64,000 bases of DNA. Origin: Acidobacteriota bacterium (lineage in GTDB: Bacteria; Acidobacteriota; UBA890; WLXD01). A program made the position numbers and the translations under genes. The stretch covers positions 744,001-808,000 of the forward strand of contig WLXD01000001.1 of assembly GCA_012103255.1 (NCBI GenBank), in the 5' to 3' direction. Under the pieces are notes generated by a model. That model saw only the letters and a list, made by a program, of their open reading frames with translations, was not told where the DNA came from and ran no database searches. This document shows positions 23,321 through 37,194 of the stretch, in pieces (position 1 is the first letter of the stretch; every line of letters starts with the position of its first letter).

Positions 23321-24616
23321 CTAGGCGATGACTCCCAGATCCTTCGGCTTGTAGCCGCGATCGGGGAACAGCTGGTCGGGCGCCGTATTGCCGCCGCGCT
23401 TGGTCATCACTTCCGTGATCACGTCGCGATAGTCGGTCGTGATCTTGAGATCCTGGCCGTCGTAGAGCTGCCCCTTGGCGAGCCCCGGCCACTTCGTCAT
23501 CACCCGACCGCCGGCGATGCTGCTACCCATTGCGAGCATCAGTGAGCCATGCCCGTGGTCGGTGCCTCGCGAGCCGTTCTCGAAGACGTTGCGCCCGAAC
23601 TCCGTCATGCACATCACCGCGACGTCTTTGCGGTTCGACGCGCCGAGATCGGCGTGGAAGGCGGCAAGCGTGCGCGAGAGGTCGCGCATCAGGTACTCCA
23701 TCCATCCACCCGTCGAGCCCTGCTCCTCGTGCGTATCCCAACCGTCGAGATCGATCGCGATAGCTTCAACACCGATGTCGGCCTTGATCAGCGCTGCGGT
23801 GCTCTTCATGGCGTAACCGAAGTCGGAGTCCGGATACTTCGCTTTTCCCTTCGGCTTGTAGCCGGCGAAGTCGATCGCGTCGAGCAAGTCGATGGTTTGC
23901 AGCGTGTTGCTGGCAGCAGTTTTGAGGGGATCAGCATAGGGCTCGTACATGGCCTCCAGCGCCTGCATCCTCTCGCGCTCTTCGCGGCCGTAGATGTCGA
24001 GTCCGAAGTCGGCCATCTCGGCGATCGCGAGCGTCTGCGGCCCGCCCACCAGTGTGCGCTGTAGTCCGTAGCCGATGCCGACTGAGCGCAGCACCGCGTC
24101 CTTCATGGTCGGCGCGGTTGTTTGTAGGTGGCGCCCCAGCCAGCCGGTAAAGAGCGTGCCGGGATTGCCTTCGCCCACCTCCATGTAGTGCATGGCTTCG
24201 AAGTGCGATCGCGTCGGGTTCTCGAGCCCGCAGGCGTGCACTACCAGCAGATCGTCCGACGCGTAGGCGTCGAGCAACGACGTCATCGACGGCGGCAGAC
24301 CGAAGTTGTCGTCGAGCGCGGTGGCCTTGTCAGAGCCCCCCGCGTCGGGCGGCTTGATGGCGATGGTCGGTCGGAGCTTGTAGTACTGGTTCTCGTTGAA
24401 GGGCACGCACATGGTGAGCGAGTCCACGCCGCCGCGCAGGAAGACCGACACGATCACGTCCCGATCGCTCGCGTCGCTCTGAGCGAAGGCAACGCGCGGC
24501 ACCCAACCGGGCATGGCGGCGGCGATGGCCATCGTGCCACCCACACGCATGAAGTTGCGTCGCGAGACCTGCCGGTATTCGTTGCAGCCGCAGTCAGCTT
24601 GCTGGCGCTTGCTCAT
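23321..24616 (-). CDS. DUF1501 family protein with Tat signal
   Basis: The 431-residue protein begins with a Tat-like signal (SRRNFMRVGGTMAIAAAMPG). DUF1501 features follow: VSVFLRGGVDSLTMCVP, LVVHACGLENPTRSHFEAM, DLDGWDTHEEQGS, and FGRNVFENGSRGTDHGHGSLMLAMG. DUF1501 has an alkaline-phosphatase/sulfatase-like fold by family knowledge, and the Asp/His-rich DTH and TDHGHG motifs look like metal-binding sites. The ATG is 1 bp after the DUF1800 stop (TGAGATG), so the two are translationally coupled. The function of this pair is not established. Confidence 0.9.
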   Translation of the reverse strand: MSKRQQADCGCNEYRQVSRRNFMRVGGTMAIAAAMPGWVPRVAFAQSDASDRDVIVSVFLRGGVDSLTMCVPFNENQYYKLRPTIAIKPPDAGGSDKATALDDNFGLPPSMTSLLDAYASDDLLVVHACGLENPTRSHFEAMHYMEVGEGNPGTLFTGWLGRHLQTTAPTMKDAVLRSVGIGYGLQRTLVGGPQTLAIAEMADFGLDIYGREERERMQALEAMYEPYADPLKTAASNTLQTIDLLDAIDFAGYKPKGKAKYPDSDFGYAMKSTAALIKADIGVEAIAIDLDGWDTHEEQGSTGGWMEYLMRDLSRTLAAFHADLGASNRKDVAVMCMTEFGRNVFENGSRGTDHGHGSLMLAMGSSIAGGRVMTKWPGLAKGQLYDGQDLKITTDYRDVITEVMTKRGGNTAPDQLFPDRGYKPKDLGVIA

Positions 24617-24617
24617 C

Positions 24618-26156
24618 TCAGTACTCCTGGAACTCGGGGGCCGAGATGGCCGTTGCCAGTGCTTCACGCACACGTTCGCGGCTACGCCGTTTGGCGAGCA
24701 TCGTCTCCAGGGTCTTACGAGTCTCTGCACCCATCCTGCCGTGCATCAGAACCCGGTCGATGCGCTTGACGATGGACGCGGGTGAGCCGCTCGGATCGTC
24801 CAGCGCGGGATCGAGACTCACCGCGTCGTCGAAGACTGCCGATTGGGCGAAGTTCCAGCGCGGCACAAGGAGGCTCGACCACCACTCGCTCCTGTCCGGG
24901 TAGCCGTTCGGCGGGGTCCACGAGAAAGGCAGATGCCCGGCATCGCCGAGGTGATCGAGCATTGGGGCGGCGTCATCGACGTCCGCGGCCAGAGCACGGA
25001 GTGCGGAGATCACGAGGTGGAACGGCCGCTTCAGTTTCGGAGTGGCAGTGCCGATCGTCTTCTCTCGGAGCGCCTTGCGCACCATGGCCCGGATGTCGCC
25101 ATTGGTGCGCCGATAAGTCTTGGCCACGCTCTTCACCAGCTTCTTGCTCGGTTCGTATCCGTGCAACCAGCGCAGCATCTTGGTGGCGATGTACTCGGAT
25201 GTTTCCTTGCGCTTGGCGAGGATGTCCACCACTCGTTCGCCGTCAGCAATGCCACCGCCCGCTGGGATGCTCTTGCCGAGCACTCGTTTCGTGCCGTTGT
25301 CGTGCATGTACGCGAAGAACGCAAACGTGCCGATCTCACCGTTCGTCTGGGAGTAGGGGTTGCGCCAGTTCCAGCCCGTCAGGCATCGGGCGACTTCCTT
25401 GACGTCCTTTTCGGTGTAGCCGCGATCGGCCCCCATCGTGTGGAGTTCGAGAAGCTCGCGAGCGTAGTTCTCGTTGGGATGGTTCTTCTCGTTAGTGTCG
25501 TTGGTGAGGTACGAGAGCATCGCCGGGCTGTGAGCGCTGGCGGCCAGCATCTGCGGGAACGATCCCAGTGCGTTTGCGCGCACCACGGAGCGATCGTCCA
25601 CCGGCTTGAGAACCTGCATGAAGTCGCCGAATACGTCGATGCTGAAATGGTCCGACCAGAAAATCGACATCCGTTCGAACAGCTGACGCGGGCTGTAGAG
25701 CGCGCGATAGAAGGTCGCAACCCACAGTTCGAAGATCGGCACGAACGGATTGTCCGAGTACTGGCGCCATAGTTGCTGCGCTGACATCGATAGCGTGGGC
25801 AGCCCGCCGTGAAGAGAATCCTCAAGCGCCGAGTCATCGAGGCTGGCGAAATCGAGCTGTTCTTCGAGCCACCCCTCGTAGCCGATCTGGTCGATATGGT
25901 CGTGGTCGGCGACCGTTGGCCCCAGCGTGGAGCGCTCGAGCAACAACGCTTCGGCTTGCGATACCGCGGCCTGGGCAGCCGGAGAGTTTCCATTGCCGGC
26001 GGCGCGCGCCGCGGTGGCCATTGCCGCAACGTCGGAACGCAGTGCGTTGGGTATTGTGATGCGGCGACGCGGCGCGTCGGCAAGCAGAAGCCCCGGCGGA
26101 AGTGCGAGAGCCGGTCGGCGAGCGCCGTACCAGCCATGTCTCATTCGTTGCTGCAC
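24618..26156 (-). CDS. DUF1800 family protein
   Basis: The 512-residue protein carries the DUF1800 signature NENYARELLELHTMG and the associated segments RALYSPRQLFERMSIFWSDHFS and CLTGWNWRNPY. It starts the DUF1800-DUF1501 operon, a pair that occurs together in many Acidobacteriota, Planctomycetota and Bacteroidota. A GTG at 26156 preceded by AGGAG with 10 bp spacing was preferred over TTG 26282. The ATG at 26144 is the alternative. An N-terminal segment with RRPALALPPGLLLADA may act as an export signal, but that is weak. No enzymatic function is established. Confidence 0.85.
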   Translation of the reverse strand: MQQRMRHGWYGARRPALALPPGLLLADAPRRRITIPNALRSDVAAMATAARAAGNGNSPAAQAAVSQAEALLLERSTLGPTVADHDHIDQIGYEGWLEEQLDFASLDDSALEDSLHGGLPTLSMSAQQLWRQYSDNPFVPIFELWVATFYRALYSPRQLFERMSIFWSDHFSIDVFGDFMQVLKPVDDRSVVRANALGSFPQMLAASAHSPAMLSYLTNDTNEKNHPNENYARELLELHTMGADRGYTEKDVKEVARCLTGWNWRNPYSQTNGEIGTFAFFAYMHDNGTKRVLGKSIPAGGGIADGERVVDILAKRKETSEYIATKMLRWLHGYEPSKKLVKSVAKTYRRTNGDIRAMVRKALREKTIGTATPKLKRPFHLVISALRALAADVDDAAPMLDHLGDAGHLPFSWTPPNGYPDRSEWWSSLLVPRWNFAQSAVFDDAVSLDPALDDPSGSPASIVKRIDRVLMHGRMGAETRKTLETMLAKRRSRERVREALATAISAPEFQEY

Positions 26157-26321
26157 GAGCGTAGTGCTCCTGTTCAGGGGCCGCTCAGCAGGGGCGAGCG
26201 GGCCGGTGTCTCGACCCGCTTGTGACGCTATCAAAGGGACGATGGCGTCGACAAGGGGGTCGTCGCGGGTGGGCGCCAGCAACGGTCACCCAGGGCGCGC
26301 GTTGCGCTGGGCTTCGTCGGT

Positions 26322-28460
26322 TCAGCGTGGGCTGATCGCCGCGAGCGGGTTCTCCAACAACCAGACCTCGGCGCGATACTCGCCGGCCGTGAACACGAGG
26401 CGGTCGTAGCGAGGGTGAAGCACCACATCGCGCAGGTCGCGCGGTAGATCCAGGATCAGCCAGGCCAGATTCTGACCATCGGATGAAACCCAGCCGAGCG
26501 AGTGGCGGTCGGCTTCCGCACGGACGAAAACGAGACCCCCGCCATCGGCCGTCCACCCCGACAGCTTGATCGCGTCGGCTTCGGTACCCAACGAGCCGAC
26601 GTCGTCGCGTCGGCCGGTTGCTACGTCGAGAAATTGCAGCCGCCAGCCCTCGAGTCGGCCGGGCCGTCGCGGTCGAATTGCCGTCGCAAGACGTTCGCCG
26701 TCTGGCGAAAACAACATGTCGATCACGTCGCGGCGCGCGATTCCTTCGAGGAGCGTGAGTTCAGCCTGGCTGTCGAGGTGCCGCACCACCAGGTCGCCGG
26801 TGTCGTCGTCCCGTGGCCGAAAGTACGCCAGCCGAGCACCGTCGTCGGAAATCGCCGGTGAGACTCCGCATCCACAGCGGGCACCGTCCCAACTCGCCAG
26901 CATGGTGCTCTCGGAAGAGTCGGGATCAATCGAATAGATGCCCCACTGGTTGTCCTTGTCGACTGCCTCGGCGATTAGCTGCCCGTCGGCCTGCCAGCGA
27001 GGTGGAAGCACACGACGCAGCTTGGGCGAGAGCGTGTGTTCCTTGCCGGTGCTCATGTCGCGAATGGTCAGAACCTTCGGGCCGAGGTCACCTGGCAACA
27101 GGCCCGGCTCCGACACGTAGACCATGCGCGCGCTATCCGGTGAGATGCGCGGCAGTCGATTGACCCCCACGAGCCGTCCTCCAATGGGAATCCGTGCTCC
27201 CAGGGTGCGCTCGTCCGGGCTAAGGGCCGCGGTATAGATGTCGTTGAGACTCACCTGTTGCGCATAGATCAGCGCGCCGTCGTTCGTGAACCCCATCGGG
27301 ATGCTGCGACCAAAATCGGGCTTTAGCAGCTGTGCCTCGCCTACGGGCTGGCCCTGGAGCGAAACTTCCACGATCCATGCGGCGAGGCTCCCAGTGCGAT
27401 CGCTGACGAACAGAACGTGCTGTCCGTCGGCCGTCCAGATCGGTAGAAGGTCGTTCGCCGGATGATCAACCAGCTTCGTGGTCATCGAGCCATTGGTCGC
27501 GGTCAGGAGCACGTCGTGTGTGCCGTCGTCGTTCACCTGGTGATAGGCGATCCAGCGTCCGTTGGGCGACAGGCGAGCGACCTCGGGCGCGGTCGCGCCC
27601 AGACCGGCAACGGTGTGAATTGTGCCGTTGCGCGTATCGATGAGCGCTAGTTCGTGCGTCGACTCGTCGACGTAGACGATTGCCAACAGATCACGCCCAT
27701 CGAGCGACCAGCTCGCCAGTTCGACGTGGCGCGGTCGCGTCCAGCCTGAGAGAAGCGTGCGGTTTTCTCGACCATCGAGGCGCACCGTACGGATCTGGAA
27801 ACCCGTTTCAGGCGAGTACCACGTGTAGGCGATGCGGTCGCCCTCCGGCGAGACCACGCTCGAACTCCAGGCGTCGTGCTCCAGCGAAGGCGTCAGGTCG
27901 GTTACGAACTGCTCGACTCCGCGATCGAAGTCATGGATCGCAAGGTTGCCCGACGCCCAATCGACATAAGAGATAAAGCGCCCGTCCGGGGAAAGGGCTC
28001 CAAACGCGTATCCGGCGTCGCCCTCCCAAAGCTTGCGCGTGACGGTTGTACGGCCCGACGCGTAGCGCGCATCGGTGCCTAGCGCTGCACGTGACAGCAC
28101 AACCACTTCGGCCACTGCCGGGTTGGCGCCGTAGTCCTCGACGATACGGAGGTGGAGTGCCCGAGCCTCTTCGACGCGTCCGATGGCCGTCAGCAGGAGC
28201 GCCATCCGGTATCGGGCCACGGCCGTCAACGGCACGTCAGCATCTGGCGCGGCGATCACTAACTCATAAGTCGCGATGGCCGCCTCGGGATCGCCCAACG
28301 CTTCTTCGAGATGTACCGCACGCTGCAGGAGCTGACGCGCCGTGGCGACCGCTGACGACTGCTGAGCAGTCGCAACACCCGTCGCGGCGATCAGGAGCAT
28401 CGCCAGCAGCGAACTCGTGAGCGGCCAGCCTGCTTTGTCGGCCAGTTTTCGAATCATCAT
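26322..28460 (-). CDS. secreted TPR plus TolB-like beta-propeller protein
   Basis: The 712-residue protein has an N-terminal signal (MMIRKLADKAGWPLTSSLLAMLLIAATGVATAQ). About 90 residues of TPR-like helical repeats follow (RAVHLEEALGDPEAAIATYELVI). Then comes a long beta-propeller with WD40-like/PD40 repeats: LSPDGRFISYV, VSPEGDRIAYTW, LSPNGRWIAYH, FSPDGERLATA. No catalytic domain follows the propeller, unlike the S9 peptidases in this window. A direct repeat TTGAC-N6-TTGAC lies 79 bp upstream, matching sites before the DUF5916 gene and the kinase operon. The start is uncertain: 28493, 28460 or 28457. Confidence 0.8.
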   Translation of the reverse strand: MMIRKLADKAGWPLTSSLLAMLLIAATGVATAQQSSAVATARQLLQRAVHLEEALGDPEAAIATYELVIAAPDADVPLTAVARYRMALLLTAIGRVEEARALHLRIVEDYGANPAVAEVVVLSRAALGTDARYASGRTTVTRKLWEGDAGYAFGALSPDGRFISYVDWASGNLAIHDFDRGVEQFVTDLTPSLEHDAWSSSVVSPEGDRIAYTWYSPETGFQIRTVRLDGRENRTLLSGWTRPRHVELASWSLDGRDLLAIVYVDESTHELALIDTRNGTIHTVAGLGATAPEVARLSPNGRWIAYHQVNDDGTHDVLLTATNGSMTTKLVDHPANDLLPIWTADGQHVLFVSDRTGSLAAWIVEVSLQGQPVGEAQLLKPDFGRSIPMGFTNDGALIYAQQVSLNDIYTAALSPDERTLGARIPIGGRLVGVNRLPRISPDSARMVYVSEPGLLPGDLGPKVLTIRDMSTGKEHTLSPKLRRVLPPRWQADGQLIAEAVDKDNQWGIYSIDPDSSESTMLASWDGARCGCGVSPAISDDGARLAYFRPRDDDTGDLVVRHLDSQAELTLLEGIARRDVIDMLFSPDGERLATAIRPRRPGRLEGWRLQFLDVATGRRDDVGSLGTEADAIKLSGWTADGGGLVFVRAEADRHSLGWVSSDGQNLAWLILDLPRDLRDVVLHPRYDRLVFTAGEYRAEVWLLENPLAAISPR

Positions 28461-28538
28461 TGAAGTCGAAAGTGACACCGGCAAACCAGTCATTTGGAAC
28501 GCTCGATGTCGAGTATGGGGTGCCGCTATTCGTGGGTT

Positions 28539-28554
28539 GTCAACGGCGTGTCAA
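28539..28554 (-). promoter_or_regulatory. response-regulator direct repeat, site C
   Basis: On the minus strand TTGAC-ACGCCG-TTGAC forms two half-sites with an 11-bp period. It lies 79 bp upstream of the TPR/TolB-like start. The half-sites are identical to those of site A (31073-31088) and site B (34045-34060). Confidence 0.6.
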
Positions 28555-28595
28555 TTCGGCGAGTCGCTACCCAGAATACCGGCGCCTCGCGGCTC

Positions 28596-30995
28596 TTAGT
28601 AGCTGAACAGGTACGAGAGCTTCACGAATAGCTGGTTCGCGTCGTTCAGGAAACGGCCCTTCGTTCGCCGCAGAAGGTTGCCGGTCGCACCTTCGATCAA
28701 TTCCAGATTTTGGCTGTTGCTGTTGTAGCCGACGTAGAGCGCTGTCCATGGATTGACCAGGTACGTCGCGAGGAAGTCGGCGTTGACGCTCTGTGTGGTT
28801 TCGAGCGATGTGAATTCCGGGTTTGCGTCGACGGACTCGTACTGGCCGATCAGTCGTAGCGAAAACTCACGGGTGAACTGCCAGTCGAGCCGAGCCCGGA
28901 AGACATCGCTGCGGAAGATGTTGGCTCCGGTCGTGGCGTCCGAAAGATATGCATGGAGCCAACGGCCGGAGACCCTCACGCGATCGGTGGGACGGTAGGC
29001 AAGCACGATCTCGCCGTCCTGTGTGTGCCCTAATTCAGGGGTAGCTCCCGCGGCGGGAACGAAGTTCACCGCGGTGCCCCATCCCTGCCATGAGTTGAGT
29101 TCGAAGCTACGCAACAGTCGGGTGTCGAACCAGAAACCGCCCCGCTGGACTTCGTACTGGCGATCTTCCGTGAGAGACGAGTAGTCCTCGGGCCGAAGTC
29201 GCAGCTCCTGGCCGAACATCCATCCACCGAAAGTGGTCTGCCCGGCCAGGCTCAGGCCGTACGACGGGTTGTACGACAGGTCCAGCCGTTCGCCGTTGCG
29301 GTCGTAGGTGTCGGTGAAGTTGAGCCCCGGGCCGTGCGAGATGAGTACGTTGCCCTCCGGACGAAAACTGTAGTTGGCTCGACTATCGAGTTGGCGGATA
29401 CCAATCCGCGGAATGAATCCCGTCTCCGCACGAAATTCGTCCGAAATATCGCGATAGGTCGCGCTCGCGTTGAACGTGCGTCCGGACCGTTCGACGCGTG
29501 CGTAGTAGGCCGGGCCGTCGAGTTGCTCGCCGTCCAGAGTGCGGGTACTACTCGTGACCGCCTGGAAAGCGGTTACCCAGTTCTGTCCGAGTTTTACGCG
29601 CCCGTCGACGCCTCCCACGCGATTGAAACTGTCGTGCAGGTTCCTGTCGACGTACATCAGCCCCACGTTCGATTGGTTGGGCAGGTCGTGACTTATCCGG
29701 ACAACCCCGTGCCGTGCGCGCTCGCCAGACAGCGGCGAGCTTTCGGTAACGGTGCGACCGGGGGCGCGGTCGTCGATTCCAAGCCCACCGATCGTCCATC
29801 CGCCGACCTTGCCGGTCGCGCGCAACCCGAACTGTGGATTGGCGATACGTCGTGTGAACAGCAGGCTCAGTGGTGTTTCGAAGTAGTTGGCGTTTTCGAG
29901 AAAGAAGGGTCGCTTCTCGGGGAAGAACACTTCGAATCGCTGATTGACCGTCAGCTGCGGCTGATCCGATTCCACCTGACTGAAATCGGGGTTCACCGTG
30001 GCGTCGACCACGATTGCATCCTTCACTACGAACTTCGCGTCTAGACCGGCCGCTGGGTCCACCGTGTCAGTCACGAAGTCCGGGCCGCGCACGGTTTCGT
30101 CGATGGCCCTGAAGGAGCGGACGGTGCCGTAGGGGATCATGCGCAGGTTGCGGCCCGGCGAGATGTTGTCGAAGCCCGTGATCGTCGCGGCCTGGTTCAG
30201 GATGCCCTCGAGGCGCGTGGAAACGTGAGGCCAGGTGACCTCTTCCGCGGCGCCGCGCGGGGTCCACCGCCACAGCACGATGCCCCAGGTCTGGAAGTCG
30301 GCTCGCGGGAAGCGAAGGCTCTTGAACGGGATCGACATGATGACCACGTAGCCCTCCTCCGTGATGCGACCATCGCTGCTCCAGAGTGTGTCGAACGAGG
30401 TGTCTGCGCCGCCGCCTTCGCCATCACCCTGGGAGGTGCGACCCTCGGTCCACAGCGCATCGCGCTGCACGCCCAGAGGATTGGTCGAGAACTCGTAGGC
30501 TCGTTGCTCGTCGCGAAACGTGTCCAGCGTGACGGTCACGATGTCATCGGCGCCGATATCCTCCCGCCGCGCCATACGTCCGCGGATGGCAGCGGAATCG
30601 GCGTCCCACGCGACGAACACGACATGCAGTGCCGTGTCGTCGTGGGCGAGCCAGACGTTGGTACGCCGGCTAGCCTCAGCGCCATCGGTCGGCGTGCGTT
30701 GCACGAAGCCGGCGGCGAGGGACATTGAATCTCGCAGTTCCTCTGGCGGCTGCATTCCCGCAAAGTCGTCGAGGGTGGGCGGCCGATGGATACGCGGCAC
30801 GAACAGCGAGACGCCGGTACCGTCGCCTCGATAGCCGGTCTGCGCGCGTTCTTCCGCCGTTGCACGCTTGCTGTCGGGACCCTGTGCAAGCGCTGGGAGG
30901 CTCGCCAGGAGAGCCATGCTCACGCCGGCAATGGCGGCGGTGTGCCTGCATATCGCGACACACTTCGCACATCGGGCCAGGTGCGGTGGATGCAT
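28596..30995 (-). CDS. DUF5916 outer-membrane protein with CBM9-like N-terminal domain
   Basis: The 799-residue protein has a signal peptide ending at LPALAQ. A CBM9-like beta-sandwich domain covers about 75-250 (TNVWLAHDDTALHVVFVAWD, TITLDTF-like TVTLDTFRDEQRAYEFSTNPLG). The DUF5916 segment follows with the hallmark VNPDFSQVESDQPQLTVNQRFEVFFPEKRPFFLENANYF. The remainder is rich in amphipathic strands and ends in an aromatic (LFVKLSYLFSY), as outer-membrane barrels do. By family knowledge it sits in the outer membrane and may bind glycans; no direct function is known. Site A of the direct-repeat set lies 78 bp upstream. Confidence 0.88.
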   Translation of the reverse strand: MHPPHLARCAKCVAICRHTAAIAGVSMALLASLPALAQGPDSKRATAEERAQTGYRGDGTGVSLFVPRIHRPPTLDDFAGMQPPEELRDSMSLAAGFVQRTPTDGAEASRRTNVWLAHDDTALHVVFVAWDADSAAIRGRMARREDIGADDIVTVTLDTFRDEQRAYEFSTNPLGVQRDALWTEGRTSQGDGEGGGADTSFDTLWSSDGRITEEGYVVIMSIPFKSLRFPRADFQTWGIVLWRWTPRGAAEEVTWPHVSTRLEGILNQAATITGFDNISPGRNLRMIPYGTVRSFRAIDETVRGPDFVTDTVDPAAGLDAKFVVKDAIVVDATVNPDFSQVESDQPQLTVNQRFEVFFPEKRPFFLENANYFETPLSLLFTRRIANPQFGLRATGKVGGWTIGGLGIDDRAPGRTVTESSPLSGERARHGVVRISHDLPNQSNVGLMYVDRNLHDSFNRVGGVDGRVKLGQNWVTAFQAVTSSTRTLDGEQLDGPAYYARVERSGRTFNASATYRDISDEFRAETGFIPRIGIRQLDSRANYSFRPEGNVLISHGPGLNFTDTYDRNGERLDLSYNPSYGLSLAGQTTFGGWMFGQELRLRPEDYSSLTEDRQYEVQRGGFWFDTRLLRSFELNSWQGWGTAVNFVPAAGATPELGHTQDGEIVLAYRPTDRVRVSGRWLHAYLSDATTGANIFRSDVFRARLDWQFTREFSLRLIGQYESVDANPEFTSLETTQSVNADFLATYLVNPWTALYVGYNSNSQNLELIEGATGNLLRRTKGRFLNDANQLFVKLSYLFSY

Positions 30996-31058
30996 TGGGG
31001 GGCCAGGGGGATCGCGAGCGGAGCACTCATCGGCAAGGTACGCCCTGCGGCGGAACGG

Positions 31059-31072
31059 TCTGTCACGACAGA
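31059..31072. promoter_or_regulatory. 14-bp palindrome next to site A
   Basis: TCTGTC-AC-GACAGA is symmetrical except for the 2-bp centre. It abuts site A on the DUF5916 side, about 64-77 bp upstream of that gene. It could be a second operator. It is too short and has no T-run, so a terminator is unlikely. Confidence 0.4.
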
Positions 31073-31088
31073 GTCAAAGAAACGTCAA
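31073..31088 (-). promoter_or_regulatory. response-regulator direct repeat, site A
   Basis: On the minus strand TTGAC-GTTTCT-TTGAC has the same 11-bp period as sites B and C and shares 14 of 16 bases with site B. It lies 78 bp upstream of the DUF5916 start, in the gap after the response-regulator gene. Confidence 0.65.
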
Positions 31089-31119
31089 CTTTGCCGGGTT
31101 TCGCCCCGCGCCAGTCCGC

Positions 31120-31812
<693 letters not shown>

Positions 31813-31822
31813 GTCTCCTCCA

Positions 31823-34009
31823 TCATTGTCTCGGCGGCTCCACGTCTCCGTGGCGTCGCAATGGCAGCCGAATTCTGAACGAGCTGCCTTCTTGGGGGCG
31901 GCTGTCGACGTCGATGTGTCCGCGGTGCGCGTCCACGATGTGGCGCACGATGGTCAATCCGATGCCGCTCCCGGCCACTGACTCTACTTCGGGACTCTCG
32001 AGACGTGTGAACGGCGCGAAGATCTCCTGGATCGAATCCTTGCTCATGCCCACGCCGGTGTCGCGCACGACGATCACGAAGTCCTTGCCGTCCTCGGCCA
32101 GACTGACGAAGACTTGCTTGCGGCCCTCGCCGATGTACTTGGCAGCGTTGGAGAGTAGGTTCACGAGCACCTGAGCCAGGCCGTCACGATCGACGTCGGC
32201 CACGATCGAGGTGTCCGGAAGAGCAACTTCCAGGTCGACCCCGGCCGTCTCGAACGAGTATCGGTAGCGTTCGATGATTCCTGTGAGCAGAGCCGTTACG
32301 TCCGATGAGCGGAAGTGAAACTGACGTCGACCGGATTCCATTCGCGAGAAGTCGAGCACGTTGTCGATGACGCCGGACAGGCGCTCGCTTTCGCTGAGCA
32401 TGACCTCGTAGTACTCGGATCGCTTCGCGTCCGGCACCCATCCCGCTCGGAGGTTCTCAGCGAACATCCTGATCAGCGCGAGCGGAGTCTTGAGCTCGTG
32501 CGAGACGTTCGAGACGAAGTCGGAACGGGTTTGTGCCAGCACGACCTGGCGCGACATGGTGCGTGTCGCGAGCGTGAGACCGCCAACCACCGCAAGGAAG
32601 GCCGCAGCGAGCAAAACCGAGTAGTCGAATACGTCCTGGCGCGCCGCGTCTTCCACAGTGCCGACTCGCGGATAGGTGGCGATGCGCCAGCCCGGCAAAG
32701 CCGTGAGGTTTACGCGCGACACGACGCGATCCGGCGGAACGGTTTCCGTCGAGGCGAACACAGGGGCCCCGATGGGATTGAGCAAGGCGACTCCGAATCC
32801 CTGCCACGAGCCGGGTTCCAGCAGGAGTTCGCGCAGGATCAGAGTCGCGCTCGACGGTCTCCACCTGCGGAGCAGACGCCAGCCGGTATCGCCGCGCGCC
32901 GAGATCACCGTACTGCCGGTGTTGTCGTCCGGGAGATTTAGATAGGCGATCGACCACTCGGGGCTGGTTCGGGTGCCCTCGAGTTCCGCCGCGTCGGTAT
33001 CAAGCGATGCGGTGACAACGGACCCTTCCATGCCGCCTAGCTGCGGCGCCTGACGTACGAGCATGTTGAGCGCCGCCGCAATGCGATTGAGCTCGGCGTC
33101 CTCATCGAGCGCCTTCACGACACGAGTCTCCTGCTGGTCGTCGAGCTCGAACTCTGCAAGCGCTGTTTGGGTTTCAGTGCGGTAGAACGCGTGGGTATCG
33201 GTGTCGAGTTGGAACCTGTACTTCGCCAGGAATTCGAGCATTTCAACGCGGTGCTCGGCTGCACTCCACGAGTCACCGTCGGCTGCCGCCGCCTGTGACA
33301 GTCCGACGTGGCCGATGAGATTCCATCGCGCGAGCTCTGGGTCGAGCGGATCTACCAAGCCCAACATGCGTCGCCATTGCTCCGCCGCCTGGGTCGGTTC
33401 GGAGGCCTTGAGGTGCGCCCGGGCCATGGCGTTGATGGCGCGGATTCGCTCGTGATCGTTGTCGGCCACACCGACGGCGCGCCGGTAGAGACGCTCGGCT
33501 GCCGGCAGGTCCTTGTTCGACATCTCCGACTGACGGCCGCGGTCAAGAAGCCAGGCGTACGACCCGTCGCTCGCGAAGGCCGTCTGCATTACGCCCGGCG
33601 ATAGCGCGGGCAAGCGACTCCGCGCTCCGCGCGGGTAGACGACTTCGCCATCCGGTGCCAGCAGGACGATCGGCCGGAGTTCCGGGAATGCCCGTTCGGC
33701 TGCCGCCAGACGCGCCACGATGGCCGCCTCGGTCCACTCGCCTGCGTCGAGTTCAGCGAGGAGCTCGCGCTCCCATGTATCCATCGTCTCGTCGAGATTC
33801 GTGCTGAGCAGATCGGCAGCACTACTGTGCTGCTCTTCCACGAGCAGAAGACGAGTGCCCGCCCGCTGTCGGACGGAAATGATGCTGACGATTGCGAGAA
33901 CAAGGATCGGCAGCATGAAGGCCGCGATGAGCCCGAGACCTTCCGGCGAGGTCCAGCGGACCCCTGACCATCCGGGAGGGCGATGCGGCCACAGACGAAG
34001 TTTGGCCAT
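31823..34009 (-). CDS. sensor histidine kinase with large TPR-like periplasmic domain
   Basis: The 728-residue protein has TM1 at about 25-46 and TM2 at about 464-481, leaving some 415 residues outside the cytoplasm. That region holds TPR-like helical repeats (AERLYRRAVGVADNDHERIRAINAMARAHLKASEPTQAAEQW is one). The cytoplasmic part has no clear HAMP domain. It has a HisKA with His504 in SHELKTP, then HATPase boxes N (LLSNAAKYI), G1 (DTGVGM) and G2 (GSGIGLTIV). ATG 34009 was chosen over TTG 34039. It leads the operon with the response regulator. The stimulus is unknown, but the sensor size suggests protein or peptide contacts. Confidence 0.9.
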   Translation of the reverse strand: MAKLRLWPHRPPGWSGVRWTSPEGLGLIAAFMLPILVLAIVSIISVRQRAGTRLLLVEEQHSSAADLLSTNLDETMDTWERELLAELDAGEWTEAAIVARLAAAERAFPELRPIVLLAPDGEVVYPRGARSRLPALSPGVMQTAFASDGSYAWLLDRGRQSEMSNKDLPAAERLYRRAVGVADNDHERIRAINAMARAHLKASEPTQAAEQWRRMLGLVDPLDPELARWNLIGHVGLSQAAAADGDSWSAAEHRVEMLEFLAKYRFQLDTDTHAFYRTETQTALAEFELDDQQETRVVKALDEDAELNRIAAALNMLVRQAPQLGGMEGSVVTASLDTDAAELEGTRTSPEWSIAYLNLPDDNTGSTVISARGDTGWRLLRRWRPSSATLILRELLLEPGSWQGFGVALLNPIGAPVFASTETVPPDRVVSRVNLTALPGWRIATYPRVGTVEDAARQDVFDYSVLLAAAFLAVVGGLTLATRTMSRQVVLAQTRSDFVSNVSHELKTPLALIRMFAENLRAGWVPDAKRSEYYEVMLSESERLSGVIDNVLDFSRMESGRRQFHFRSSDVTALLTGIIERYRYSFETAGVDLEVALPDTSIVADVDRDGLAQVLVNLLSNAAKYIGEGRKQVFVSLAEDGKDFVIVVRDTGVGMSKDSIQEIFAPFTRLESPEVESVAGSGIGLTIVRHIVDAHRGHIDVDSRPQEGSSFRIRLPLRRHGDVEPPRQ

Positions 34010-34044
34010 GCACCCGATTTTGGCACGGTCGGAGTCCAACGCGC

Positions 34045-34060
34045 GTCAAATGAACGTCAA
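34045..34060 (-). promoter_or_regulatory. response-regulator direct repeat, site B
   Basis: On the minus strand TTGAC-GTTCAT-TTGAC lies 36 bp upstream of the histidine kinase start. It has an 11-bp period and matches site A at 14 of 16 positions. It implies autoregulation of the two-component operon. Confidence 0.65.
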
Positions 34061-34234: not shown

Positions 34235-34570
34235 ATGGGCAAGGGTAGTTTTCTGGGTGAGTTCGAGAGACTCGTATTGCTTGCGCTCCTGCGCGTTGGA
34301 AACGAGGGGTACGGAATGACCGTACGGCAGGAACTCGAGCAAACCACCGGGCGCGCCGTCACGATTGGTGCCGTGTACGCGACACTTGCCAGGCTCGAGG
34401 AGAAGGGGCTCCTGAGCTCGTGGCATGTAGACCCCGAGCCGCATCGAGGCGGTCGTTCGCGGCGGTTCTTCCGCGTGGAGACCAGCGGCCGGAAGGCCCT
34501 GGCTGAATCACGCGCGGTGCTCGATCGGATGTGGGCCGGGGTTGATGTGGCGGACGAGGTGCAGTCATGA
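34235..34570 (+). CDS. PadR family transcriptional regulator
   Basis: The 111-residue protein has the PadR winged-helix pattern EFERLVLLALLRVGNEGYGMTVRQELE, then TIGAVYATLARLEEKGLL, and the wing RGGRSRRFFRVETSGRKAL. GAGGAA lies 7 bp before the ATG. Its stop overlaps the ADOP permease start as ATGA, so the two products are coupled. Repeats at 34125-34170 are its likely operator. Confidence 0.92.
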   Translation: MGKGSFLGEFERLVLLALLRVGNEGYGMTVRQELEQTTGRAVTIGAVYATLARLEEKGLLSSWHVDPEPHRGGRSRRFFRVETSGRKALAESRAVLDRMWAGVDVADEVQS

Positions 34571-37194
34571 GCGTTGCGAACCGCCCGCCGCGACTTGCCG
34601 CCGGTTTGCTTCGGCGCATGTTGCCGAACCGGCACCGGGACGACGTGCTCGCCGAACTCGAGAACGAATACCAGGCGGATGTGGTCCCGGCCCGAGGCGA
34701 GTTCTCGGCCCGGGTCTGGTACTGGCGTCAGGCGCTGGGGTCGGTGCTTTGGCATGCGCGTCACGGCAGAAGGGGTCCGTTGCAAAGCCTTGAGTGCCTG
34801 CTGCAGGACGTTCGGTTTGCCTGGCGCGGCTACGCCAGAGCTCCGGGGCTCGGCCTGCTGAGTATCGCCACCATTGGGCTCGGTGTCGGGGTGAGCACCA
34901 CGGTCTTCAGCGTGCTCAACGGCGTCGTCCTCAGGCCGCTGCCGTACCCGGACTCACACGAGCTCGTCCGACTGTGGAACAACTGGAACCTCAGCAAGGG
35001 CGTGGTCGAGGAGCTGATGGTGCAGGCGGATGGCTTCCAGGCGCTCCACGGTCGCCTCAACGCCCGCGCCACCCTTACCGGGCAGGGCGAGCCGGCGGAG
35101 CTCTTCGGCGCTGAGATCACCCCCGGGTACCTGTCGATGTTGGGCGCGGTTCCGCTCGCCGGCAGATTCCCGGTGGTGGGCGAAACGGTGCCGGGCGAGA
35201 GCGACGTGGTCGTGCTAGCGGAAGCAACGTGGCGGCGACTGTTCGGAGGCGACACGGACGTCGTGGGTAGAACGATCGAGTTGGGCGGCGTTTCCACCAC
35301 CGTGGTCGGCGTGGCGCCAGCCGAATTCCGGCCCGTTGTGCGAGGAGTCGAGTACTGGAAGCCCATGACCATCGACCCCGATGATTTCTCCGACTATCAG
35401 GGGGTTGCCCAGGTCACCGTCATCGGGAGATTGGATCCATCGGCACCCGCCGATGCGGCGAGGGTTTCGGTGACTCAATACGCGGAAGGAGTGCGGGAGC
35501 GATCACCCAGAGCATTCGGCGAATCGTGGGTGGACGCATCAGCCCAGGTGTCGCTTCACCGGGTTCTCGTGGGAGACAACCGCGCGACGCTCTGGACCGT
35601 GATGGGCGCGGCTGCCTTCGTACTGCTGACGGCGTGTGCGAACGTGGCGAATCTTCTTCTGGCTCGCGCTTCTCGCAGGCGGCGAGAAATTGCGATCCGA
35701 CTCGGTATGGGTGCCAGCAGTGGCCGGCTGGCGCGACAGTTGCTCACCGAGAGCGTGGCGCTCGGCGCGCTGGGCGGCGCCGCCGGCGTCGGCCTGGCCG
35801 CCGCGCTACTCGCGTTCGGTGAGGTCGTTTTGCCCGCGGGACTGCCGCTGAGCGAGGCCGTGCGGCTCGATACACGTGTGTTGAGCTTCGCACTGCTCGC
35901 GACGTTCCTCACTAGCCTGTTGTTCGGGATCGGTCCGGCTTTGCGCGCTGCGCGGCTCGACCCGCAGCGCTACTTGCGCGAGTCGGCGCCGAGCTTCTCG
36001 CGCAGCCGCGAGAGCGCTCGTGTCAACCGTTTGATCGTCGCCGCGGAAATCGCGATGGCGGTCGTGCTGGCGATCGGCGCGGGGCTGATGCTCCGTAGCC
36101 TGGGCGAACTCAACGCGGTGGACACGGGCCTACGCGCGGACGGCGTAACGACGATGCGGATCAGACTGCCCGCGAATTCGCGTTATGCGGAGGAGCCCGA
36201 TCGGGCCCAGGCGTTTCGCGCGATCACCGAACGGCTCGCGACGGTCCCTGGCGTAGCTTCGGTTGGTGCGGGCACGTTTCTGCCGTTGCAATCGGGGTTG
36301 GTCACCGCGGTGTACGGAGTGGACGGGGTGGAGTATCCCGAGAATCAACCGCCACCGAACGCAGCATTCCAGATGGTGATGGCCGACTACTTCGACACGC
36401 TCGGAATTCCCGTTCTGGCCGGGCGCACGATCGCTCGCTCGGATGTTGCGGACGCGCCGAACGTGGGAGTCATCAATCGCACGTTCGCGGAAGATGCCTT
36501 CGGCGGAGTCGGGGAAGCCGTCGGCAAGAAGGCCACGATGTTCGGCGGTGTGGAGTTCGAGGTTGTCGGCGTTGTGGGCGACACGCTGCAACAGGATCCG
36601 CAGAGCGAAGCCTGGGCCGAAGCGTTCTTCAGCTTCCAGCAAGGTCCGTGGTGGCCGTCGATGTACGTGCTGGTGCGCGGGGCTCCCGACGCCATGCCCA
36701 CTGCCGCGAGCTTGCGCGAAGCGATCTGGGAACTCGACCCGCAGGTGCCCATTCTCGACATCCGTCCCATGACGGAAGTGGTGCGTTCAGCGACCGCACA
36801 GCCACGCTATCTGGCGCTCCTCCTGAGTGGCTTCGGAGCGGTCGCTCTGGCGCTTGGCGCGATCGGCGTCTATGGGTTGATGAGCTTCGCAGTGAACGAG
36901 CGAACCTACGAGTTCGGGATCAAGGCAGCGCTCGGTGCAACCCGGCGACGGATTCTCCAGCAGGCGGTGGCCGACGCACTGCCGCCGGCAGTCGGCGGCC
37001 TGATCGTCGGGTGTCTCGTCGCTGCGGGGCTCAGTCGCACCATGCAGGGGATGCTGTTCGGCGTGGCGGCACACGATCTGGTGACCTTCGCTGCGGCTCC
37101 GGCGATCCTGTTCGTGGTTGCCCTGCTGGCGAGCTACCTGCCGGCACGCAAAGCGGCACGAGTCGACCCCAAGCAATTGACGGGCGCGGAGTAG
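34567..37194 (+). CDS. ADOP-family ABC transporter permease (MacB/FtsX-like)
   Basis: The 875-residue protein has a prefix domain (about 1-75) and a first membrane helix near 97-118 (LGLLSIATIGLGVGVSTTVFSVL). A MacB-like periplasmic core follows, then FtsX helices around 345-460, a second periplasmic core and a final FtsX set at 755-865. It ends in LPARKAARVDPKQLTGAE, the usual ADOP tail. It is the same size and layout as the permease at 15107 but clearly diverged from it, so the two are paralogues. No ATPase gene is adjacent. Confidence 0.9.
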   Translation: MSVANRPPRLAAGLLRRMLPNRHRDDVLAELENEYQADVVPARGEFSARVWYWRQALGSVLWHARHGRRGPLQSLECLLQDVRFAWRGYARAPGLGLLSIATIGLGVGVSTTVFSVLNGVVLRPLPYPDSHELVRLWNNWNLSKGVVEELMVQADGFQALHGRLNARATLTGQGEPAELFGAEITPGYLSMLGAVPLAGRFPVVGETVPGESDVVVLAEATWRRLFGGDTDVVGRTIELGGVSTTVVGVAPAEFRPVVRGVEYWKPMTIDPDDFSDYQGVAQVTVIGRLDPSAPADAARVSVTQYAEGVRERSPRAFGESWVDASAQVSLHRVLVGDNRATLWTVMGAAAFVLLTACANVANLLLARASRRRREIAIRLGMGASSGRLARQLLTESVALGALGGAAGVGLAAALLAFGEVVLPAGLPLSEAVRLDTRVLSFALLATFLTSLLFGIGPALRAARLDPQRYLRESAPSFSRSRESARVNRLIVAAEIAMAVVLAIGAGLMLRSLGELNAVDTGLRADGVTTMRIRLPANSRYAEEPDRAQAFRAITERLATVPGVASVGAGTFLPLQSGLVTAVYGVDGVEYPENQPPPNAAFQMVMADYFDTLGIPVLAGRTIARSDVADAPNVGVINRTFAEDAFGGVGEAVGKKATMFGGVEFEVVGVVGDTLQQDPQSEAWAEAFFSFQQGPWWPSMYVLVRGAPDAMPTAASLREAIWELDPQVPILDIRPMTEVVRSATAQPRYLALLLSGFGAVALALGAIGVYGLMSFAVNERTYEFGIKAALGATRRRILQQAVADALPPAVGGLIVGCLVAAGLSRTMQGMLFGVAAHDLVTFAAAPAILFVVALLASYLPARKAARVDPKQLTGAE

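What the first reader, a model, noticed from the sequence alone, without database searches (positions are those of the whole stretch)
28539..34060. Local two-component regulon marked by three TTGAC-N6-TTGAC direct repeats
The same 11-bp-period direct repeat lies upstream of three units on one strand: the kinase-regulator operon (34045-34060), the DUF5916 outer-membrane gene (31073-31088) and the TPR/TolB-like propeller gene (28539-28554). Sites A and C sit almost exactly 78-79 bp before the start codons. OmpR/PhoB-family regulators bind tandem half-sites with 11-bp spacing, so the adjacent response regulator is the natural candidate. The set suggests a dedicated system: a kinase with a large TPR-like periplasmic sensor controls an outer-membrane CBM9/DUF5916 protein and a periplasmic TPR/propeller protein. 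I know of no description of such a unit.
Basis: partly seen in the sequence, partly recalled or inferred. Interest (0 to 1): 0.72.

Follow-up and report, generated by a model that had tools for sequence, protein, structure and literature searches.

The report
OmpR-type two-component regulon in Acidobacteriota
A sensor kinase and its partner DNA-binding protein in an uncultured Acidobacteriota genus appear to switch on their own operon, the neighbouring envelope genes and at least two distant operons through a conserved 11-bp repeated DNA box; this is an ordinary kind of switch, but one distant target carries an undescribed, well-conserved hairpin RNA.

Summary
The three TTGAC-N6-TTGAC repeats exist at the stated coordinates (0.04 expected in the window). 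The 16-mer alone is barely enriched genome-wide (8 hits, 3 for the reversed control), but comparison with two congeners shows that it is a real regulatory element. Orthologous kinase-regulator and TPR/propeller promoters keep it, and it also sits, conserved in all three species, at two distant promoters: one for a small secreted protein and signal peptidase I, the other for an RNA hairpin, a small protein and an AAA ATPase. Of 35 box hits in three genomes most fall into orthologous groups; none of 16 control hits do. A -10-like hexamer lies 20-21 bp after the last half-site in 12 of 13 sites, PhoB-like class II geometry rather than a -35 element. At the RNA promoter, relatives lacking this kinase-regulator pair keep the -10 but lack the boxes. 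So an OmpR/PhoB-type autoregulated regulon is well supported, although binding by the adjacent regulator is inferred. Corrections: it is not local; the DUF5916 gene is a species-specific newcomer without orthologues in the congeners; no CBM9 was found. New member of a known kind. The unexpected bonus is a covarying hairpin RNA absent from Rfam.

The parts
34045..34060 (-). Box A: TTGAC-N6-TTGAC upstream of the kinase-regulator operon; a third half-site TGGAC at 34034-34038
   Evidence: NTGAC-N6-TTGAC conserved at the orthologous promoter of both congeners
34017..34022 (-). -10-like CAAAAT, N21 after TTGACG of box A, 7 nt before ATG 34009 (leaderless or nearly so)
   Evidence: GACAAT and GAGAAT at the same place in the congeners
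31823..34009 (-). Sensor histidine kinase, 728 aa: two TM helices, ~410-aa periplasmic region with a TPR-like alpha-solenoid, HisKA + HATPase_c
   Evidence: orthologues 70-71% identical in the congeners
31120..31812 (-). OmpR/PhoB-family response regulator (Response_reg + Trans_reg_C)
   Evidence: 86-87% identical to the congeners, DNA-binding half almost invariant
31073..31088 (-). Box upstream of the DUF5916 gene; third half-site GTGAC at 31062-31066
   Evidence: gene absent here in the congeners, so conservation cannot be tested
31035..31040 (-). -10-like TACCTT, N20 after the third half-site GTGACA
28596..30995 (-). DUF5916 predicted outer-membrane protein, 799 aa; inserted between RR and propeller in this species only
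28539..28554 (-). Box B: TTGAC-N6-TTGAC upstream of the TPR/propeller gene
   Evidence: full box in G001, one half-site in G002
28512..28517 (-). -10-like CATACT, N20 after TTGACA of box B; identical hexamer and spacing in both congeners
26322..28493 (-). Periplasmic TPR + PD40 (TolB-like) beta-propeller protein
   Evidence: conserved neighbour of the RR in both congeners
24618..26282 (-). DUF1800 protein, likely co-transcribed with the propeller gene
23321..24730 (-). DUF1501 protein, overlapping the DUF1800 gene, likely the last gene of that operon
   Evidence: found in G001; the G002 contig ends before it

Best explanation
The repeat is the binding box of an OmpR/PhoB-type response regulator, most likely the one encoded between the boxes. 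The kinase senses an envelope signal through its periplasmic TPR-containing domain and phosphorylates the regulator. The regulator then binds two (sometimes three or four) head-to-tail TTGAC half-sites at 11-bp period, placed so that the promoter-proximal half-site covers about -38 to -34 next to a weak -10 hexamer, and recruits RNA polymerase as PhoB does (class II activation). The core regulon conserved in the genus is four promoters: HK-RR itself (autoregulation); TPR/propeller-DUF1800-DUF1501; a small exported protein with signal peptidase I; and a hairpin RNA with a small protein and an AAA ATPase. In the window species a DUF5916 gene with its own box has been added between RR and propeller. 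Shown here: sites, conservation, geometry, synteny, co-occurrence with the HK-RR pair. Inferred: which protein binds, activation rather than repression, and the signal.
For: Three exact boxes in 5.5 kb, 0.04 expected in the window. Box conserved at the HK promoter in all three species although most of the surrounding intergenic DNA has diverged, and at the propeller promoter. TGACN5KTTGAC: 35 hits in the three congeners against 16 controls; 45 cross-genome locus pairs are homologous for real hits, 0 for control hits; outside the genus no enrichment, 197 against 202 in 27 genomes. Exact TGACN6TTGACN22ANANT: 8 hits in the three genomes, all at the four core promoters. The -10-like hexamer peaks sharply at N20 (10 of 13 sites keep A2 and T6; 12 of 13 at N20-21; at most 4 at any other single offset). 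At the syntenic RNA promoter, G003 and G007, which lack an HK-RR orthologue, keep the -10 but not the boxes. No other hit in the window genome that I examined lies upstream of another regulator gene of this family. RR DNA-binding domain almost invariant among congeners. PhoB sites overlap the -35 in the same way (PMC3348028).
Against: No binding or expression data. The genome holds dozens of loose response-regulator candidates (49 in the first look), so the binder is assigned by adjacency, autoregulation and co-occurrence only. Raw enrichment is modest (p about 0.005). G002 has only one half-site at the propeller promoter. G003 and G007 are 71-75% complete, so absence of the HK-RR pair there is not certain. 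The N20 geometry was first seen in these sites and then counted on them; only one search is a genome-wide test.
Confidence: 0.72

Rival explanations
1. The boxes are real but are read by a different OmpR/PhoB-family regulator; the HK-RR operon is merely one of its targets.
For: The genome has many OmpR-type regulators (49 loose candidates), and tandem 11-bp half-sites are common to the whole family.
Against: Among the window-genome hits examined this is the only regulator operon with the box; the boxes and this HK-RR pair are both limited to the genus in the genomes searched, and the RNA promoter in relatives without the pair lacks boxes.
Confidence: 0.15
2. The regulator represses from these boxes: sites at -49 to -34 overlap the -35 region and would block polymerase.
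For: OmpR-family regulators can do either, and the overlap with -35 would allow it (general knowledge of the family; geometry).
Against: The promoters lack a -35 at the normal 17-bp spacing and have weak -10 hexamers, which is typical of activator-dependent promoters.
Confidence: 0.1
3. Chance or promoter artefact: TTGACA is the sigma-70 -35 consensus and the pairs are accidental duplicates of it.
For: The exact 16-mer is only weakly enriched genome-wide (8 against 3). One conserved group (ExbB/TonB operon) carries a consensus TTGACC-N18-TATAAT promoter, and its box match there is in inverted orientation.
Against: Orthologous conservation of sites against none for controls, and spacing to -10 of 20-21 rather than 17.
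Confidence: 0.03

Closest known systems
PhoB / pho box (E. coli and relatives)
   Same: OmpR-family winged helix; tandem half-sites at 11-bp period overlapping the -35 region of activator-dependent promoters; adjacent kinase; autoregulation
   Different: Half-site here is KTTGAC in promoter orientation, not CTGTCAT; score 208.9 is below the PhoB equivalog cut-off 296.2; no phosphate genes among the targets; kinase with a periplasmic TPR domain
MtrA, YycF/WalR, Mtb PhoP (11-bp tandem-repeat regulators)
   Same: Highest-scoring NCBIfam equivalogs are MtrA (211.5) and YycF (209.1); tandem direct repeats (Mtb PhoP: 7-bp motifs with 4-bp spacer, PMC4832192)
   Different: All below their curated cut-offs (300, 340); different half-site and unrelated kinase sensors
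Cpx/Bae-type envelope-stress two-component systems
   Same: Works like: periplasmic sensor kinase, autoregulated, targets include exported proteins and signal peptidase I
   Different: Not a member by score (CpxR 149.7 against 341, BaeR 164.8 against 380); signal unknown

Membership tests
OmpR/PhoB-family two-component system | Response_reg + Trans_reg_C regulator next to a HisKA/HATPase_c kinase | tested here: met
   E 1.9e-33, 2.3e-25, 5.4e-19, 2.5e-26
OmpR/PhoB-family two-component system | Tandem direct half-sites with ~11-bp period at target promoters | tested here: met
   conserved across species
OmpR/PhoB-family two-component system | Phosphorylation-dependent binding of the regulator to the box | not testable with these tools
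   needs purified protein
PhoB (phosphate regulon) | Equivalog score above the curated cut-off | tested here: not met
   208.9 bits against 296.2
PhoB (phosphate regulon) | Half-site overlapping the -35 with the -10 at fixed spacing | tested here: met
   -10-like at N20-21 in 12 of 13 sites (works like PhoB, is not PhoB)
MtrA / YycF (WalR) | Equivalog score above the curated cut-off | tested here: not met
   211.5 against 300; 209.1 against 340
CpxR / BaeR envelope-stress regulators | Equivalog score above the curated cut-off | tested here: not met
   149.7 against 341; 164.8 against 380

The most novel reading that the evidence does not exclude
The regulator's best-conserved target is an undescribed structured RNA: a ~95-nt hairpin with covarying arms and an invariant apical segment (GGACGUAAAGGGGAGCGGCCUGGGG), found in one Acidobacteriota order. 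It is read from the two-component box promoter at one locus and from sigma-54-like promoters at its other, stand-alone copies, so that two regulatory systems converge on one new RNA family.
Probability: 0.35. Interest if true: 0.65.

Novelty: new member of a known kind. Interest (0 to 1): 0.45.

Why it matters
I found no published binding motif for a two-component regulator of Acidobacteriota in the paper library, so a predicted consensus, promoter geometry and four-operon target list is a directly testable starting point. It links a TPR-sensor kinase to proteins of unknown role (DUF1800/DUF1501, TPR-propeller) and to secretion (signal peptidase I). The linked hairpin RNA is a candidate new RNA family and may be the more important find.

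Tried and rejected
Genome-wide hits G000:C1:639936 and G000:C4:231231 have no conserved counterpart in the congeners and no -10 at N20: treated as chance. The box-like match inside the propeller gene (28225-28239, also in G001) is conserved by its coding sequence: rejected as a site. The ExbB/ExbD/TonB group (G000:C1:1125446) is conserved but inverted and next to a consensus sigma-70 promoter: ambiguous, left out of the core. The group at G000:C2:345732 / G001:C201:10726 lies near a sigma-54 promoter, at different distances in the two species: weak. Other phylum HK-RR pairs (45-53% identical) did not show the box. Paper searches for the motif, for DUF5916 and for Acidobacteriota regulons gave nothing. 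An Rfam search of the hairpin RNA gave only chance microRNA scores.

Full report
OBSERVATION. The window has exactly three TTGACN6TTGAC matches, all on the minus strand and at the stated coordinates; 0.04 are expected and no shuffle reaches three. Two of them continue with a third, imperfect half-site in register (GTGAC 31062-31066, TGGAC 34034-34038). The downstream units are as described: HisKA/HATPase_c kinase and Response_reg/Trans_reg_C regulator, a DUF5916 protein, and a TPR/PD40 propeller. Pfam finds no CBM9. The kinase start conserved in relatives is ATG 34009.

CHANCE. Genome-wide the exact 16-mer is only weakly enriched (8 against 3 for the reversed control), although 11 bp is the commonest spacing that is not a multiple of three (8 against a mean of 2.3). 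Counting alone would therefore leave the finding open.

CONSERVATION. Two congeners are held (G001, G002). Their contigs match Acidobacteriota MAGs OFTM137 and OFTM26. Both keep HK-RR-propeller-DUF1800 (G001 also DUF1501), but neither has the DUF5916 gene in between, and their best DUF5916 proteins are distant paralogues (28-36%). Upstream of the kinase all three species have NTGAC-N6-TTGAC while most of the surrounding intergenic DNA has diverged. Upstream of the propeller the window species and G001 have the full box and G002 one half-site; all three share TTGACA-N20-CATACT.

REGULON. The pattern TGACN5KTTGAC gives 35 hits in the three genomes and 16 for the reversed pattern. Loci of real hits fall into orthologous groups (45 cross-genome pairs); control loci give none. 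Outside the genus the pattern is not enriched (197 against 202 in 27 genomes, G055 left out because of a repeat). Conserved in all three species: group C, two boxes 23 bp apart (G000:C2:1031314 and 1031337), and group D, two boxes 84 bp apart (G000:C6:367124 and 367208). D lies before a ~96-aa exported protein and signal peptidase I, followed by a LysM/BON protein. C lies before a hairpin RNA, a ~115-aa protein and an AAA_28 ATPase. An exact match to box plus N22 plus ANANT occurs eight times in the three genomes, always at A, B, C or D.

GEOMETRY. After the last half-site, a -10-like hexamer with A2 and T6 stands at N20 in 10 of 13 sites and at N20-21 in 12 of 13; no other single offset exceeds 4. 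TTGAC is therefore not a -35 at 17-bp spacing. A regulator dimer at about -49 to -34 is the arrangement of PhoB, whose sites overlap the -35 (PMC3348028). The kinase ATG follows its -10 by 7 nt, which suggests a leaderless or nearly leaderless message (inference).

WHICH REGULATOR. The adjacent one is favoured: autoregulation conserved in three species; an almost invariant DNA-binding half; no other regulator promoter among the window-genome hits examined; boxes and HK-RR pair both confined to the genus. The sharpest test is locus C. In G003 (same family) and G007 (same order), where the best kinase and regulator matches are distant, the locus is syntenic and keeps GAAACT/CAAACT but has no TTGAC boxes. 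Those MAGs are incomplete, so this supports but does not prove the assignment.

SENSOR. The kinase has a ~410-aa periplasmic region. Residues 150-320 are predicted with confidence as an alpha-solenoid (pLDDT 73-94) that matches TPR structures; the rest is low-confidence. An envelope or secretion signal is plausible given the targets, but unproven.

CLASSIFICATION. By domains and box it is an OmpR/PhoB-type two-component system. It is below the cut-off of every named equivalog shown (MtrA, YycF, PhoB, CpxR, BaeR). New member of a known kind; the DUF5916 insertion with its own box is a species-level addition.

SIDE FINDING. The stretch after box C (L086 9410-9500) is 97-98% identical among congeners while the neighbouring genes are about 78%. 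It folds with z = -4.0 and has no Rfam match. Matches were found in 15 of 396 phylum genomes, the strong ones all in this order. Eleven copies align with 13 of 22 helix-1 pairs changed on both sides and 97% of cells paired; slid controls reach 34-47%. Four stand-alone copies carry a sigma-54-like TGGCAYG-N4-TTGC just upstream. The window itself has no copy. This deserves its own study.

Noticed in passing
L086:9410-9500 (G000:C2:1031409-1031499); further copies G000:C7:339204, G001:C210, G003:C92, G006:C528, G007:C49 and C164, G008:C715: Candidate new structured RNA: ~95-nt hairpin with covarying arms (13 pairs changed on both sides) and invariant apical GGACGTAAAGGGGAGCGGCCTGGGG; no Rfam match; several copies directly behind sigma-54-like promoters, others behind the box-C promoter.
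   Followed up: partly
L088:7420-7760 and orthologues L103, L097: The ExbB-ExbD-ExbD-TonB-TPR operon has a perfect TATAAT promoter with TTGACC at N18 and a conserved inverted TTGAC-type box just upstream; it may be another target or another regulator's site.
   Followed up: partly
L089:7500-7750 and L096:6600-6742: Conserved sigma-54 promoter TGGCACG-N4-TTGC before a helix-turn-helix protein gene and a GAF-GGDEF-HD gene, with a TTGAC box at a different distance in each species.
   Followed up: no
window 28596-30995: DUF5916 gene present between RR and propeller only in the window species; flanked by a box on each side, so it was either inserted with its own box or the box was copied.
   Followed up: partly
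window 34235-37194 and L087:4105-7118: PadR regulator plus FtsX/MacB-type permease pairs stand next to both box A (divergent) and box D (upstream of it).
   Followed up: no
G055: The reversed control pattern CAGTTKN5CAGT occurs 285 times in this 8.4-Mb Acidobacteriota genome against 51 forward: probably an abundant interspersed repeat.
   Followed up: no
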